DNA of 64,000 bases from a virus, in the IMG/VR virus record IMGVR_UViG_3300042923_001201, positions 1-64,000 of that record; one strand, written 5' to 3'. How positions within the stretch are numbered: position 1 is the stretch's first letter; every line of letters starts with the position of its first letter. The translations under genes and the position numbers were made by a program. The notes under the pieces are model-generated. The model was not told the DNA's origin. It ran no database searches and worked only from the letters and a program-made list of their open reading frames with translations. Positions 2,698-33,524 of this stretch are shown here, piece after piece.

Positions 2698-3147
2698 TTA
2701 GTTCACCTTAATAGCTTCAGCAACAATTTCTTTAATTACACTTCCATCAGCCTTACCTTTTAGCATAGGTGATACAATTTTCATAACTGAACCAATATTA
2801 ACAGGAACTGTATTTATTTTAAGGAACTCAATCGTCCCATCTACAATTGCCTTAACGTCATCTTTAGACATTGGTTTAGGCAAATAAGATGCAATCAAAT
2901 TTTCACTTTCTAGCAGTTGTGCAATTTTTTCACCATTTTGAACCTTATAGAAAGCATCAAACTCTTCCTTCAGTTCAGATTTAAACTTTTGACCAATTTC
3001 AACAATTTCAGAATCAGTAAGATCACGCTTTAGATCTTTAGCCTTGCCTTGAATACGGCTAATAAACATGCGTAGAGTGGAAACTGTATTTTTATCCTTA
3101 TTTCTCATTGCCTGTTTCATGTCTTCTTGAATTTTGTTCAACATCAT
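2698..3147 (-). CDS. YqeY-like protein (GatB/YqeY domain, about 149 aa)
   Basis: Start chosen at the M-M pair (3144-3147) behind AGAGGAGAG; the longer frame has no ribosome site. The length equals that of bacterial YqeY (about 148 aa). It shows the family features: an N-terminal helix KIQEDMKQAMRNKD, the central Y-L-P-K-P motif, and the C-terminal lysine-rich K-G-K-A-D-G-S. The domain is related to the tail of the amidotransferase subunit GatB and is thought to bind tRNA. With a tRNA-like gene and structured RNA just upstream, a role in tRNA handling is plausible but unproven. Confidence 0.85.
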   Translation of the reverse strand: MMLNKIQEDMKQAMRNKDKNTVSTLRMFISRIQGKAKDLKRDLTDSEIVEIGQKFKSELKEEFDAFYKVQNGEKIAQLLESENLIASYLPKPMSKDDVKAIVDGTIEFLKINTVPVNIGSVMKIVSPMLKGKADGSVIKEIVAEAIKVN

Positions 3148-3157
3148 TATCTCTCCT

Positions 3158-3316
3158 CTATATAAAATAGACTGCAATCGTAAACAAAATAGAAATAAAT
3201 GACAAAGAAGCAAATATAGGAGTTAAATTAAACATTTTTGACTTTACAGGAAATCCACATGAAAGACCTGTCATAAATGATAAGAACAATGATAAAAATG
3301 AAAATAAAGAAAACAT
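3158..3316 (-). CDS. Small membrane protein (52 aa, two helices)
   Basis: ATG at 3314-3316 behind AAAGGATG. About 20 hydrophobic residues at the N-terminus (FSLFSFLSLFLSFM), a short polar turn containing K-S-K, and a second hydrophobic helix to the C-terminus give a hairpin inner-membrane peptide. No family recognised; it could modulate the membrane or exclude superinfection. It ends 11 bases before the YqeY start. Confidence 0.6.
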   Translation of the reverse strand: MFSLFSFLSLFLSFMTGLSCGFPVKSKMFNLTPIFASLSFISILFTIAVYFI

Positions 3317-3348
3317 ATTATCATCCTTTCTTTAATATTTAAAACAAA

Positions 3349-3448
3349 GCGGAAGTGAGGATTCGAACCTCAAACTCTTTCCTCTTATCGGAGGCTTATC
3401 TCATAGAGACCCTGGAAGGGGCGTGTTTTACCATTAAACTACTGCCGC
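3349..3448 (-). tRNA. tRNA-Gly(TCC)-like gene with an abnormal anticodon/variable region
   Basis: On the minus strand the acceptor stem pairs six of seven bases (GCGGCAG with CTTCCGC). The D-arm closely resembles Gram-positive tRNA-Gly, and the T-arm is perfect (TGAGG-TTCGAAT-CCTCA). The loop CTTCCAG would carry anticodon TCC. However its stem has two mismatches, and about 34 extra bases with two small hairpins separate it from the T-arm. Total length is about 100. No CCA is encoded. It may be a decaying tRNA, a tRNA with an insertion, or a tRNA mimic. Confidence 0.5.
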
Positions 3449-3613: not shown

Positions 3614-3763
3614 TTATTTTTTGTCCTTAGGAACTACCTCAATAACCTTCTTATATCTTTTAACAACTACTTCGGGTTCCTCTGTTTCTTTTTCTTCATT
3701 CATCCATTCGGCGATAACATAGAGTAACCAACTGAGACATAGCAAATGTACAAATCCCATCAT
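3614..3763 (-). CDS. Small membrane-anchored protein (49 aa)
   Basis: ATG at 3761-3763 overlaps the stop of the 3760-4224 gene (ATGA). A single N-terminal hydrophobic helix (FVHLLCLSWLLYVIA) is followed by an acidic then basic cytoplasmic tail. No family recognised. Coupling to the larger gene suggests they act together. Confidence 0.55.
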   Translation of the reverse strand: MMGFVHLLCLSWLLYVIAEWMNEEKETEEPEVVVKRYKKVIEVVPKDKK

Positions 3764-4224
3764 TGGTAATCACTCAACCTTTCTTGAAAATTTTGTAAAC
3801 TCATACCTTTCTTTTTCTTTTTCTTGGTATAAGTGCCATATTCTTTATAAACAGTTTTTAACTCATAGGCCTCTGACGCATAATCAAAAAGACATGAGGC
3901 AATTTTTGTTACAGATGTATCATAATACACCGCAAAGTATGCTAACTTCTGCCACCAAATATTTGTCAGTCTTATACCCAAAACAGTTACAGCTTCGTCA
4001 TTCCTTCTCATAGTTAAGCTTTCTAATCTACTTGAAATTATTTCATGAATTAAAACATCACTTAAATCACCTAAGCACCTTACTATAAACTGTTCACCGA
4101 CAAACATCATAGAGAGATGATATTCAACACAAGAGAGCCTAAAGTTTTTCTTCCTACTTGAACTTATCCAAATTTTTACTGGAAACTTTTTGTCAACTCT
4201 TACCTGCGATATGATGCACCACAT
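3760..4224 (-). CDS. Hypothetical protein (up to 154 aa)
   Basis: Not recognised. The first ATG has GAGAGG directly against it, so the true start is uncertain. The protein is mixed alpha/beta with cysteines and tryptophans in its middle, no transmembrane segment, and a run of six lysines (residues about 134-139) before a polar C-terminus. First gene of the leftward left-arm operon; a promoter candidate lies at 4293-4320. Confidence 0.55.
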   Translation of the reverse strand: MWCIISQVRVDKKFPVKIWISSSRKKNFRLSCVEYHLSMMFVGEQFIVRCLGDLSDVLIHEIISSRLESLTMRRNDEAVTVLGIRLTNIWWQKLAYFAVYYDTSVTKIASCLFDYASEAYELKTVYKEYGTYTKKKKKKGMSLQNFQERLSDYQ

Positions 4225-4320: not shown

Positions 4321-4338
4321 CCATGAAGGTGGTATAAT

Positions 4339-4418
4339 GTTCCTTCTGGTACCATGGTCCATTATGGAAACGACCAAAATGGAACTATTTCCCAAATTGG
4401 CACCATGTTCCATAATTT
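4339..4418. repeat. Operator-like repeat cluster between divergent promoters
   Basis: A 20-base direct repeat at 4348-4367 and 4399-4418 has consensus GG-Y-ACCATG-K-TCCAT-W-AT. It is interleaved with further copies of GTTCC/GGAAC in both orientations (near 4339, 4365, 4380, 4408). Spacing between the long repeats is 51 bases, about five helical turns. This looks like a cooperative repressor or activator site controlling both directions; the binding protein is not identified. Confidence 0.5.
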
Positions 4419-4432
4419 ATTTACCTGAGTAG

Positions 4433-4461
4433 TTTACAGTCTTAAATTTTCTATGTATAAT
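4433..4461 (+). promoter_or_regulatory. Strong rightward promoter, TTTACA-N17-TATAAT
   Basis: TTTACA (4433-4438), 17-base spacer, TATAAT (4456-4461). Directly downstream of the repeat cluster and upstream of a long structured non-coding segment, so it probably drives the RNA candidate and the first late genes. Confidence 0.8.
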
Positions 4462-4468
4462 GTAACTA

Positions 4469-4890
4469 TAACAGAAAAGTATTTGGTGAGAGTTGGAAGC
4501 TGAGTCTTAACACCGTTATCAAATAAAGACCAAGGTTAGCTGAGCCGATGCCGCAGTACCAGTCAGCAGTTGCACAGCAACTTCCACTAGGACAAGTGGG
4601 ATTTGTAGTTTGTGTGATGTGGTGGGTTTGGAGATCGTTCCCACATTAATAAAAAATGAACGGAGGACCTGAATTTGTAAATTCATTTGAGATTGTATTG
4701 GCCGGGGTGGTACAATCAAGAATTTACAAATTACCGGCTAGCTAGTGGTTAGTTATACTTATTTCTAGATACTACCTATACTGTAAAATGAATTGTAACC
4801 GTTACCGAACTAATCTGAAAGATTAGTGAGGAACCAAACTGAAAAGTTTGGTGAATGCCAGATAGAGTTTACGTACAATAAAATAAATAT
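4469..4890 (+). ncRNA. Candidate large structured RNA (about 420 nt) upstream of packaging genes
   Basis: No supportable gene is present, but the segment is dense in helices. A long-range helix (4537-4547 with 4735-4744, ten pairs, one bulge) encloses four hairpins: a six-pair GTTGC type (4568-4582), a five-pair CCACT/AGTGG (4584-4599), GTGGG/CCCAC (4622-4644), and a stacked 13-pair plus 7-pair arm (4672-4684 with 4720-4732; 4691-4697 with 4711-4717). Two further hairpins with GAAA-type loops follow (4809-4827, 4834-4851). It starts just after a strong promoter. It may be a regulatory leader or a free RNA; no known family was recognised. Confidence 0.55.
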
Positions 4891-4920: not shown

Positions 4921-5025
4921 ATGGGAATTAATGACAGTGATGCAATAGGTGTGTTAACGGTACTTACTGGTATAGCTACATTTATATTTGGTTTAGGTTT
5001 TGTTGTAGGAGCACTCATTTTTTAA
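4921..5025 (+). CDS. Single-span membrane peptide (34 aa)
   Basis: ATG at 4921 with an ideal GGAGG at 7-8 bases. A short polar N-terminus is followed by one hydrophobic segment (VLTVLTGIATFIFGLGFVVG). The stop codon lies in the following terminator hairpin. It is the first gene downstream of the structured RNA, unit-length with its own terminator, so it would be expressed together with that RNA. Function unknown. Confidence 0.65.
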   Translation: MGINDSDAIGVLTVLTGIATFIFGLGFVVGALIF

Positions 5026-5044
5026 TGGGTGCTTTCTTTTTTTT
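5011..5044 (+). terminator. Rho-independent terminator
   Basis: GCACTCATT pairs with AATGGGTGC (nine pairs, one G-T), followed by an interrupted run of T. Separates the 4433 transcript from the packaging operon. Confidence 0.85.
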
Positions 5045-5060
5045 AAGAATTTGAGTAACT

Positions 5061-5099
5061 TGGTTTACAAAGTCTTACATTACTGACATATTATATGTA
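5061..5099 (+). promoter_or_regulatory. Late-class promoter, TGGTTTACA-N16-ACATATTATATG
   Basis: TTTACA at 5064-5069, then ACATAT at 5086-5091 and ATGTAAGGTA. The same bipartite pattern with identical spacing recurs at 14094 and 21303, each time heading a structural-gene unit. The -10 region differs from the TATAAT of the leftward promoters, so a phage-specified factor may be needed. Confidence 0.65.
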
Positions 5100-5648: not shown

Positions 5649-5660
5649 AAGGTGCTCAAA

Positions 5661-5807
5661 ATGGAAATTACTCATGAAGAAGTATTTGAATATGTTTATA
5701 ATAATCTTATTAAAAGAGGCCTCGCTCCCTATAAAGACGACGTTGACGAAATTGTCGATGTATTTTTCGATCTTATGGAGGATTTGGGCATAGGTGAATC
5801 GGAATAA
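5661..5807 (+). CDS. Small acidic hypothetical protein (48 aa)
   Basis: ATG at 5661 behind GAAGGTG. Helical and strongly acidic (EEVFEYV, DDVDEIVDVFFDLMEDLG), with no recognised family. Located between HNH and terminase small subunit in the same operon, so perhaps a packaging accessory. Confidence 0.6.
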   Translation: MEITHEEVFEYVYNNLIKRGLAPYKDDVDEIVDVFFDLMEDLGIGESE

Positions 5808-14142: not shown

Positions 14143-14217
14143 AGTCGTGTAGCTCAATGGTAGAGCAGAGTGCTGTTAACACTAAGGTTACAGGTTCGAG
14201 TCCTGTCGTGACTGCCA
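14143..14217 (+). tRNA. tRNA-Asn(GTT)
   Basis: Full cloverleaf: acceptor AGTCGTG with CGTGACT (two G-T pairs), D-arm AGCTCAATGGTAGAGCA, anticodon loop CTGTTAA, T-arm ACAGG-TTCGAGT-CCTGT, encoded CCA. Confidence 0.93.
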
Positions 14218-14218
14218 T

Positions 14219-14297
14219 ACAGGTGTAGAGGAGTTTGGCCGTCCTCGCTTCCCTTGGAAGGAAGAAATCGCAGGTTCAAATCCTGCCACTTGTACCA
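14219..14297 (+). tRNA. tRNA-Pro(TGG)
   Basis: Acceptor ACAGGTG with CACTTGT, five-pair anticodon stem CTTCC/GGAAG around CTTGGAA, T-arm GCAGG-TTCAAAT-CCTGC, encoded CCA. One base separates it from tRNA-Asn. Confidence 0.92.
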
Positions 14298-14298
14298 T

Positions 14299-14370
14299 GG
14301 CGCGTTAGTCAAAGGGTTAAGACATCAGACTTTCAATCTGAAATTACGGGTTCGAGTCCCGTACGCGCAA
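14299..14370 (+). tRNA. tRNA-Glu(TTC)
   Basis: Acceptor GCGCGT with ACGCGC, anticodon stem TCAGA/TCTGA around CTTTCAA, T-arm ACGGG-TTCGAGT-CCCGT. Unlike the other five it has no encoded CCA, so it needs host CCA-adding enzyme. Confidence 0.9.
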
Positions 14371-14380
14371 TTTTATTTAA

Positions 14381-14445
14381 TTGTAAGGCGAAATGCCATT
14401 GGTTCACTTCTCGCTAGTGATTAAATGAGGCACCAACGATAAGGC
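14381..14445 (+). ncRNA. Nested hairpin between tRNA-Glu and tRNA-Tyr
   Basis: TTGGT/ACCAA (14399-14403 with 14432-14436) encloses a perfect TCACT/AGTGA hairpin (14404-14420) with a seven-base loop. It has no acceptor or T-arm. It could be a remnant of a lost tRNA or a processing signal in the polycistronic tRNA transcript. Confidence 0.35.
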
Positions 14446-14463
14446 CGCCCTCAGCCAAACTAT

Positions 14464-14551
14464 GTTAGAGCTGCAGAGATGGCGATCTGTGACGGGCTGT
14501 AACCCCGTTGTCCTCAGGACTTAGTGAGTTCGAATCTCACCTCTTTCACCA
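14464..14551 (+). tRNA. tRNA-Tyr(GTA) with long variable arm and imperfect acceptor stem
   Basis: Anticodon arm ACGGG-CTGTAAC-CCCGT, variable arm GTCC-TCA-GGAC, T-arm GTGAG-TTCGAAT-CTCAC, encoded CCA. The best 5' strand, GTTAGAG, pairs with CTCTTTC at only five of seven positions (two T-T mismatches), so the 5' end is less certain and function may be impaired. Confidence 0.8.
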
Positions 14552-14552
14552 T

Positions 14553-14628
14553 ACTCCTTTAATTCAGTGGTTAGAGCGTCGGTCTTATATACCGGTTGTC
14601 CCTGGTTCGAGTCCAGGAAGGAGTACCA
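14553..14628 (+). tRNA. tRNA-Ile(TAT)
   Basis: Acceptor ACTCCTT with AAGGAGT, anticodon loop CTTATAT giving TAT, T-arm CCTGG-TTCGAGT-CCAGG, encoded CCA. It would read AUA directly, whereas Bacillus-type hosts normally read AUA with a lysidine-modified CAT tRNA. The phage uses AUA freely. Confidence 0.9.
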
Positions 14629-14629
14629 T

Positions 14630-14703
14630 ATGGGTTTAGTTCAATGGTAGAACAACGGCTTCCAAACCCGTGGACGTGGGTTCGATTCCTACAACCTGTG
14701 CCA
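14630..14703 (+). tRNA. tRNA-Trp(CCA)
   Basis: Acceptor ATGGGTT with AACCTGT (two G-T pairs), anticodon loop TTCCAAA, T-arm GTGGG-TTCGATT-CCTAC as in Bacillus tRNA-Trp, CCA encoded. One C-C mismatch closes the anticodon loop. The frame was at first misread as Gly; standard numbering gives CCA. Confidence 0.85.
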
Positions 14704-32549: not shown

Positions 32550-33524
32550 ATGTCAAAAAGACTAAGGGTTTTCAATGAAGAAACATGGGCAAAAGTACAC
32601 GAAGATAATAAACAAATACTTGAAGATTATGTACTCGAATTACAATCAAAAAAGAAAAGCTCTGGAACAATTTATCAATATTCTGCAGATATTAAAATGT
32701 TTTTATGTTGGGTTCATGACAATTTGAAAAATGCGCCTATTTTAGAGTTAAAGAAACGTGACTTCCGAAGATTCTTTCTATTCCTTCAAGAAAAGTCTCC
32801 CGCGCGAATTAATAGAGTTCAATGCTCAATAAGAAACCTACTAGAATTTTGCACACAGGATGACGATTTATATGAAGAATATGAAATAAATATAATGAGA
32901 TCAGTTAAAGGTTTGGAAAAGGAAAAAGTAAGAGAAATACACTTTTTGTCAAATGATCAAATTGAACTAATTATTAATGACCTTTTAGCAAAAAAACAAT
33001 ATCAACGCGCCTTATATCTAGCCTTATCATATGAAAGCGCGGGACGTAGAGCTGAACTTCATCAAGTTTTAAAGACTAATTTCTTAAATGACAACAAGAC
33101 AAATATTGTAACAGGTAAGCGTGGTAAAAAGTTTGCGCTTAGATACTTTGGCAAATCAAAAGAAATTGCTGAATTATATTTCACTCAACGTGGCGAAGAT
33201 GATGTTGAATCTCTTTGGGTTGTTGGTGAACCTGGTGAAAGAAAAGCAGCTTCATATGAAACTCTATACAATTGGACGATGGGATTCAGAAAGATTTTGT
33301 TCGATTTAACTGAGGAAAATATTGATTTCAACCCCCACTCTCTCCGACACTCTTCATTGGAAAATTATGCACAAGGGACACATTATGTTCTAAGGGAGAT
33401 GGGCAAAGATAAATTAGATATTAAAGTATTGAAAGTATTAGCGAATCACTCAGATATTTCCACCACGGAATCATATCTTAAAGATAGAGACCAAGAGATT
33501 CTTAATGAGGCGTTCGGTATTTAA
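32550..33524 (+). CDS. Tyrosine recombinase (324 aa)
   Basis: N-terminal SAM-like DNA-binding domain (residues 20-110), catalytic domain 125-320. Arg167 (SAGRRAEL), His263-x-x-Arg266 (NPHSLRHSS), His300 (LANHSD) and Tyr309 (TTESYL) give the complete active site, in XerC/D spacing. AGGAGG lies at 7 bases. It may be an integrase, a dimer or concatemer resolvase, or an inversion enzyme; no paired attachment site or repressor was found here. Confidence 0.88.
   Translation: MSKRLRVFNEETWAKVHEDNKQILEDYVLELQSKKKSSGTIYQYSADIKMFLCWVHDNLKNAPILELKKRDFRRFFLFLQEKSPARINRVQCSIRNLLEFCTQDDDLYEEYEINIMRSVKGLEKEKVREIHFLSNDQIELIINDLLAKKQYQRALYLALSYESAGRRAELHQVLKTNFLNDNKTNIVTGKRGKKFALRYFGKSKEIAELYFTQRGEDDVESLWVVGEPGERKAASYETLYNWTMGFRKILFDLTEENIDFNPHSLRHSSLENYAQGTHYVLREMGKDKLDIKVLKVLANHSDISTTESYLKDRDQEILNEAFGI

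What the first reader, a model, noticed from the sequence alone, without database searches (positions are those of the whole stretch)
4469..4890. About 420-base multi-helix RNA candidate driven by a strong promoter upstream of packaging genes
A ten-pair long-range helix closes four hairpins, one arm of which is 13 plus 7 perfect pairs, and two tandem hairpins with GAAA-type loops follow. No supportable gene is present although the region is long in an otherwise gene-dense phage. It might be a regulatory leader, a large phage ncRNA of the GOLLD/ROOL kind, a packaging-related RNA, or a ribozyme. None was recognised.
Basis: seen in the sequence. Interest (0 to 1): 0.8.

Follow-up and report, generated by a model that had tools for sequence, protein, structure and literature searches.

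The report
New pseudoknotted phage RNA family
Just upstream of its DNA-packaging genes this bacterial virus makes a roughly 300-420-base folded RNA that codes for no protein, and the same RNA design, in no current RNA catalogue, recurs in other viruses and mobile DNA of Gram-positive bacteria, so it probably does a real but still unknown job.

Summary
It is not a chance fold. Its core (AAGGTT - helix P2 - GCCG[A/T]TGC) recurs non-coding in Geobacillus phage GR1, several IMG/VR phages, Bacillaceae and Clostridia prophages and integrative elements, and about 2% of sampled Clostridia genomes. P2 covaries strongly (95% of cells paired, 62% in shuffles). Sequence-selected motif hits carry P2 in 25/33 non-coding cases and 10/61 coding ones (p=2e-8). 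The 'ten-pair closing helix' is not conserved and competes with P2. The RNA has its own promoter (11/12 match) at a near-constant distance in all phage members, and the next gene has a second promoter, so it is an independent transcription unit rather than a packaging-gene leader. Rfam 15 has no match for any member tested. Relatives lacking it and mosaic neighbours show that it is an accessory, exchangeable mobile-element RNA. Most likely it acts in trans, as a scaffold or decoy of GOLLD/ROOL-like character; the partner is unknown.

The parts
4433..4461 (+). Promoter of the RNA: TTTACA-17-TATAAT
   Evidence: 11/12 consensus match; equivalent promoter at 96-127 nt 5' of the core in all 8 phage members examined
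4469..4890 (+). Structured non-coding RNA (5' end inferred from the promoter; 3' end uncertain, core is about 4469-4750)
   Evidence: Homologues with covarying structure; no Rfam match
4496..4504 (+). GAAGCTGAG, conserved 5' motif shared with the GR1 phage group
   Evidence: Alignment with L036/L038/L040/L041/L045 and GR1
4504..4530 (+). P1 hairpin GTCTT(4504-4508)/AAGAC(4526-4530); GAGTT/AACTC in GR1-group relatives
   Evidence: Compensatory replacement of the helix between lineages
4532..4537 (+). AAGGTT conserved box
   Evidence: Present in most members; part of the search pattern, so its invariance is partly ascertainment
4539..4567 (+). P2 helix GCTGA(4539-4543)/TCAGC(4563-4567) presenting the core loop
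   Evidence: 30-member covariation: 95% paired vs 62% shuffled, 53 double-change cells vs 12, slid controls 20-38%
4544..4551 (+). Core loop GCCGATGC, most conserved element of the family
4617..4662 (+). PK_A, H-type pseudoknot: ATGTGG(4617-4622)/CCACAT(4641-4646) interlocked with CGTTC(4636-4640)/GAACG(4658-4662), A-rich loop 3
   Evidence: 0/60 shuffles as good; same geometry with different sequences in L047, L049, L057, L146, L149
4662..4667 (+). GGAGGA motif directly 3' of PK_A (GGNGGA in most members)
4672..4732 (+). P7 long arm: 13 pairs (4672-4684/4720-4732) plus 7 pairs (4691-4697/4711-4717)
   Evidence: equivalent arm in L036, L038, L040, L045, L047, L049, GR1
4700..4739 (+). PK1: P7 loop GGCCGG(4700-4705) pairs with 3' flank CCGGCT(4734-4739)
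   Evidence: Loop-flank complementarity at the same offset (16-20 nt) in 8/8 phage members, shuffle 7-77 of 2000
4743..4749 (+). Tentative PK_C: UAGUGGU pairs with core loop GCCGAUG, closing the RNA (one mismatch)
   Evidence: Manual; same place and mismatch position in most of the GR1 group (alignment); not tested statistically
4810..4826 (+). Tandem hairpin 1 (CTAATCT-GAA-AGATTAG)
   Evidence: a two-hairpin domain with other sequences follows the RNA in GR1, L036, L038, L040, L041, L047
4834..4851 (+). Tandem hairpin 2 (CCAAACT-GAAA-AGTTTGG)
   Evidence: as above
4921..5025 (+). 34-codon hydrophobic ORF with GGAGGTG ribosome-binding site, on the same transcript
   Evidence: translation
5008..5045 (+). 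Intrinsic terminator (12-pair stem, T-run) ending the transcription unit
5064..5092 (+). Next promoter, ahead of the HNH/terminase genes
   Evidence: TTTACA-17-CATATT 9/12

Best explanation
Window 4469-4890 is a phage copy of a previously uncatalogued family of large pseudoknotted non-coding RNAs carried by Firmicutes phages, prophages and integrative or mobilizable elements. Shown here: it is read rightward, folds into P1, P2 with a near-invariant GCCGAUGC loop, an H-type pseudoknot capped by GGAGGA, and a long arm whose loop pairs with its 3' flank. It has its own promoter, separate from the packaging genes, and is gained and lost as an accessory cassette. Inferred: after infection the phage makes this compact RNA in quantity, and it acts in trans as an RNA scaffold or decoy, presenting the invariant core loop and the GGAGGA face to a widespread Firmicutes macromolecule (protein, ribosome or RNA polymerase) or to copies of itself, to the element's benefit, in the manner proposed for GOLLD and ROOL.
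For: P2 covariation. An unbiased check on motif hits selected by sequence only: P2 in 25/33 non-coding versus 10/61 coding hits, p=2e-8. PK_A in window, L047, L049, L057, L146 and L149 with 0-1/60 shuffles. PK1 at the same offset in 8/8 phage members. 11 G-U versus 3 A-C cells in P2, which points to + strand RNA rather than DNA. Own promoter at a near-constant distance in 8/8 phages and a second promoter before the next gene in most; terminator. Downstream genes differ between members. Found in GR1 at 163-507 with no feature annotated, in Lysinibacillus, Bacillus and Clostridia and in prophages. The RNA is absent from the syntenic locus of L006, and model R1 finds nothing in the full Enterococcus and TPWB06 relatives, so it is accessory. 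The RNA block is exchanged independently of the neighbouring recombinase.
Against: No transcript or phenotype was observed. No partner was identified, so the trans-acting step is inference. In the window the RNA shares its transcript with a 34-codon ORF. Homology between the phage and bacterial branches rests on the 34-nt core, PK_A geometry and GGNGGA; most of the remaining sequence does not align. The b stem of PK_A was not found in L074, L119 or L121. R1 is weak on divergent members (it scores the window itself only at E about 0.4), so absence from relatives is not fully proven.
Confidence: 0.65

Rival explanations
1. Cis-acting leader or attenuator that controls the 34-codon ORF or the packaging operon.
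For: In the window the RNA lies between a promoter and a small ORF with a good ribosome-binding site, and a terminator follows.
Against: The next gene differs in every group and often has its own near-identical promoter. In GR1 the RNA points away from the terminase genes. Bacterial copies precede unrelated genes.
Confidence: 0.1
2. RNA partner or guide of a site-specific recombinase (integrase).
For: In seven elements (L144, L145, L149, L153, L166, L127/L089, L075) it lies directly 3' of a tyrosine recombinase gene on the same strand, within about 200-350 nt of the core. The window phage also encodes a tyrosine recombinase (32550-33524).
Against: Recombinase and RNA relationships conflict: L144-L145 recombinases are 57% identical and L145-L149 28%, while the RNAs are 70% and 77%. 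L150, L121 and L057 have serine recombinases nearby instead. The phage recombinase is kept in relatives in which the RNA was not found.
Confidence: 0.1
3. A homo-oligomeric RNA-only assembly (cage or multimer) like GOLLD or ROOL; the function is that assembly.
For: Phage/prophage distribution, multiple pseudoknots, no fixed protein neighbour, accessory status: the profile described for ROOL and GOLLD in PMC12286853.
Against: Shorter (300-420 nt versus about 600-800), not in a tRNA island here (nearest array about 9 kb away), no match to either covariance model. Oligomerisation is not testable here.
Confidence: 0.15
4. A functional DNA element (replication origin, packaging or attachment site) whose hairpins act in DNA, or a replication-primer transcript.
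For: It lies at the divergent junction of leftward and rightward genes where GC skew changes sign; AT-rich DNA follows the core in the GR1 group.
Against: G-U pairs (11) far exceed A-C (3) on the + strand; promoter spacing is conserved; the neighbourhood is not conserved. The skew change follows gene orientation.
Confidence: 0.05

Closest known systems
ROOL RNA (Rumen-Originating, Ornate, Large)
   Same: Large multi-pseudoknot ncRNA of phages and prophages, no fixed protein partner, function unknown (PMC12286853)
   Different: No covariance-model match; different conserved core; shorter; no tRNA island next to it
GOLLD RNA
   Same: Large phage/prophage RNA of unknown function; expression rises during phage lysis according to PMC12286853
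   Different: No covariance-model match; 300-420 nt rather than more than 800; different architecture
smtA motif / 'Soda Lake RNA' (PMC11109978)
   Same: Large orphan structured RNA (over 350 nt) supported by covariation
   Different: Restricted to Thioalkalivibrio and next to smtA; no phage link reported
IS110 bridge RNA (from own knowledge)
   Same: Structured RNA next to a recombinase gene in a mobile element
   Different: Here the recombinase type varies (tyrosine or serine), the RNA swaps independently of it, and phages carry it far from any recombinase

Membership tests
ROOL (Rfam) | Match to the Rfam covariance model | tested here: not met
   No match in the window or any member tested
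ROOL (Rfam) | RNA-only homo-oligomeric nanocage | not testable with these tools
   Needs cryo-EM or native gels
ROOL (Rfam) | Often encoded near a tRNA island | tested here: not met
   tRNA array at 14143-14703, about 9 kb away
GOLLD (Rfam) | Match to the Rfam covariance model | tested here: not met
   Same calls as for ROOL
GOLLD (Rfam) | Expression rises during phage lysis | not testable with these tools
   No transcriptome available
Self-splicing introns and ribozymes in Rfam | Match to a curated ribozyme or intron model | tested here: not met
   only a RAGATH-6 match far below threshold (30 of 170 bits) in L119
Family described here (core + P2 + PK_A + GGNGGA) | AAGGTT-P2-GCCG[AT]TGC core with covarying P2 | tested here: met
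   in the window P2 is GCTGA/TCAGC with a longer loop (R1 score 18 bits)
Family described here (core + P2 + PK_A + GGNGGA) | H-type pseudoknot directly 5' of GGNGGA | tested here: met
   Window 0/60 shuffles
Cis-acting operon leader | Conserved downstream gene or function | tested here: not met
   Neighbours differ in every group
Cis-acting operon leader | No separate promoter for the regulated gene | tested here: not met
   Second promoter in GR1-group phages and, for the packaging genes, in the window; the 34-codon ORF in the window is the exception, with only a weak candidate promoter of its own

The most novel reading that the evidence does not exclude
A new class of mobile-element RNA, spread over Firmicutes phages, prophages and integrative elements, whose invariant GCCGAUGC loop and GGAGGA-capped pseudoknot form a conserved interaction surface for a host macromolecule, i.e. 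an RNA-encoded takeover, defence or counter-defence factor.
Probability: 0.35. Interest if true: 0.85.

Novelty: new variant of a known kind. Interest (0 to 1): 0.72.

Why it matters
Only a few large structured RNAs of phages are known (GOLLD, ROOL) and none has an assigned function. This is a further family with clear covariation, three pseudoknots of which one is tentative, a wide host range, and an isolated experimental member (Geobacillus phage GR1). It makes the question of what big phage RNAs do directly testable in a laboratory phage, and it gives a model for annotating otherwise blank intergenic regions in prophages and integrative elements.

Tried and rejected
blastn of the whole region against GenBank phages found nothing; homologues came only after TerL-based loci exposed the conserved 5' segment. 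Pattern hits L034, L035, L039, L043, L044, L046 and L050 and most genome-contig hits are coding DNA and were discarded. The pattern GAAGCTGAG..TTATCAAAT gave no new members. blastn of bacterial copies against plasmids and phages gave nothing or short AT-rich chance matches. Papers on B. cereus bcr repeats, large ncRNAs and tnpV-linked RNA gave no description of this motif. I considered GGNGGA as an anti-Shine-Dalgarno partner and rejected it because many members have GGUGG. Tyrosine-recombinase guide RNA was considered and disfavoured. Most R2 hits in genomes at E 0.01-0.05 match the expected chance rate and are not counted.

Full report
OBSERVATION. The window is part of a 94,472-base IMG/VR virus record. 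The region 4469-4890 lies between leftward genes (the last is 3760-4224) and rightward small genes that lead to HNH, TerS, TerL and portal. A strong promoter (TTTACA-17-TATAAT, 4433-4461) precedes it. MFE z-scores are moderate: -2.4 on the + strand and -3.0 on the - strand. Folding energy alone therefore neither proves an RNA nor tells the strand, and homologues were needed.

FINDING HOMOLOGUES. TerL of the window led to 32 related phage loci. The segment 4493-4571 reappeared on the opposite strand of L013 and L028/L029, and a 5' promoter match with diverged RNA reappeared in L004. Pattern scans then gave L036-L045 and L003/L005/L047 and L048. Geobacillus phage GR1 (OK896991) carries it at 163-507, with no annotated feature. 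A scan of bacterial genomes found non-coding copies in Lysinibacillus fusiformis, Bacillus sp. FJAT-50079, Eubacteriaceae and Clostridia, some just upstream of a TnpV-like gene (the TnpV name is from own knowledge, not a family search). A scan for GCCGATGCTATAAA gave a further set of prophage copies (L144-L146, L149, L152, L153, L156, L159, L161, L164, L166, L173 and others).

REALITY TEST. To avoid circularity I took all hits selected only by the sequence motif and asked whether P2 complementarity is present. It is in 25 of 33 non-coding hits and 10 of 61 coding hits, Fisher p = 2e-8. On 30 aligned members P2 has 95% of cells paired (62% in shuffles), 53 double-change cells (12 in shuffles), all six pairs with compensatory change, and a collapse to 20-38% paired when slid. 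This alignment was fitted to the model, which favours P2, but the margin is large. G-U cells exceed A-C cells 11 to 3, which indicates that the + strand RNA is what is selected.

ARCHITECTURE. In order: P1 (4504-4508/4526-4530); AAGGTT; P2 (4539-4543/4563-4567) with core loop GCCGATGC (4544-4551); a variable hairpin region; PK_A, an H-type pseudoknot (4617-4622/4641-4646 with 4636-4640/4658-4662), immediately followed by GGAGGA (4662-4667). The same PK_A geometry with unrelated sequences was found in L047, L049, L057, L146 and L149, with 0-1 of 60 shuffles as good. By eye the GR1 group has the same pseudoknot with a hairpin inserted in loop 3 (alignment); the script did not model that insertion. 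Next comes the long arm P7, whose loop (GGCCGG, 4700-4705) pairs with its 3' flank (CCGGCT, 4734-4739); all eight phage members tested have this pairing at a 16-20 nt offset, with 7-77 of 2000 shuffled flanks as good. Tentatively the core loop also pairs with sequence just 3' of PK1 (window 4743-4749).

TRANSCRIPTION UNIT. A TTTAC[A/G]-16/17-TATAA[A/T] promoter lies 96-127 nt 5' of the core in all eight phage members examined, and GR1, L036, L038 and L041 have a second promoter of the same type ahead of the next gene. In the window an intrinsic terminator (5008-5035) and a promoter (5064-5092) separate the RNA from the packaging genes. Only a 34-codon hydrophobic ORF shares the transcript. This is against a leader for the packaging genes.

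DISTRIBUTION AND CONTEXT. The RNA is absent at the syntenic place in L006, a relative with 76% TerL identity, and R1 finds no copy in the full Enterococcus, TPWB06 and other relatives. R1 is weak on divergent members: it misses the window itself at E 0.1. With the broader model R2, counting only E <= 1e-3, 8 of 391 Clostridia genomes and 2 of 399 Bacilli genomes score; both Bacilli were already known, and one further Bacilli copy (L200, E = 0.004) looks genuine by P2. Most weaker hits match chance expectation. In seven elements the RNA lies directly 3' of a tyrosine recombinase, but recombinase and RNA relationships conflict (57% versus 28% against 70% versus 77%), other elements have serine recombinases nearby, and the window's own recombinase is conserved in relatives where the RNA was not found. 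I read it as an exchangeable accessory cassette rather than a recombinase cofactor.

KNOWN FAMILIES. No Rfam 15 family matches any member at gathering score, and permissive searches gave only chance-level hits apart from tRNA. ROOL and GOLLD are the closest in kind (PMC12286853) but fail the model test. Paper searches found no description of this motif, though supplementary files could not be opened, so a prior unnamed entry in a large screen cannot be excluded.

MECHANISM. Shown by sequence: RNA-level selection, + strand, own promoter, pseudoknotted fold, mobile-element distribution, independence from any one neighbouring gene. Inferred: trans action; high abundance (from promoter strength); binding of a widespread Firmicutes target through the near-invariant loop and the GGAGGA face, or self-assembly. 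I give about 0.93 to the family being real, about 0.65 to a trans-acting accessory RNA, and have no evidence for a specific partner.

Noticed in passing
3348-3448, - strand: Rfam scores a 101-nt tRNA (42 bits) that ARAGORN does not report; it reads as a tRNA-Gly(UCC)-like sequence with roughly 30 extra bases 3' of the anticodon. Degenerate tRNA or an insertion.
   Followed up: partly
4330-4416: Operator-like repeats (TGGTAYMATGKTCC three times and ATTATGGAA/TTCCATAAT) between the divergent gene blocks, just upstream of the RNA promoter.
   Followed up: partly
4921-5025, + strand: 34-codon hydrophobic ORF with a good ribosome-binding site on the RNA's transcript, just before the terminator; L004 has another small hydrophobic ORF in the corresponding place.
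   Followed up: partly
2698-3213 - strand; 5652-5807 + strand: Host-like genes in the phage: a YqeY-like protein and a YozD-like protein (Pfam).
   Followed up: no
32550-33524, + strand: Tyrosine recombinase conserved at 49-74% identity across this group of 75-95 kb phages.
   Followed up: partly
L144, L145, L149, L153, L166, L127, L075: A block upstream of the bacterial RNA copies (hairpin, then ACAACTKAATA, then TATCAAAAAAAT and TTGCAAG) is partly shared between elements with divergent recombinases, as if the RNA and its 5' region move as a cassette.
   Followed up: partly
L075 (Lysinibacillus fusiformis): By eye the element lies downstream of a spo0A-like gene and consists of a recombinase gene, the RNA and a small ORF; it may be a very small integrative element.
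   Followed up: no
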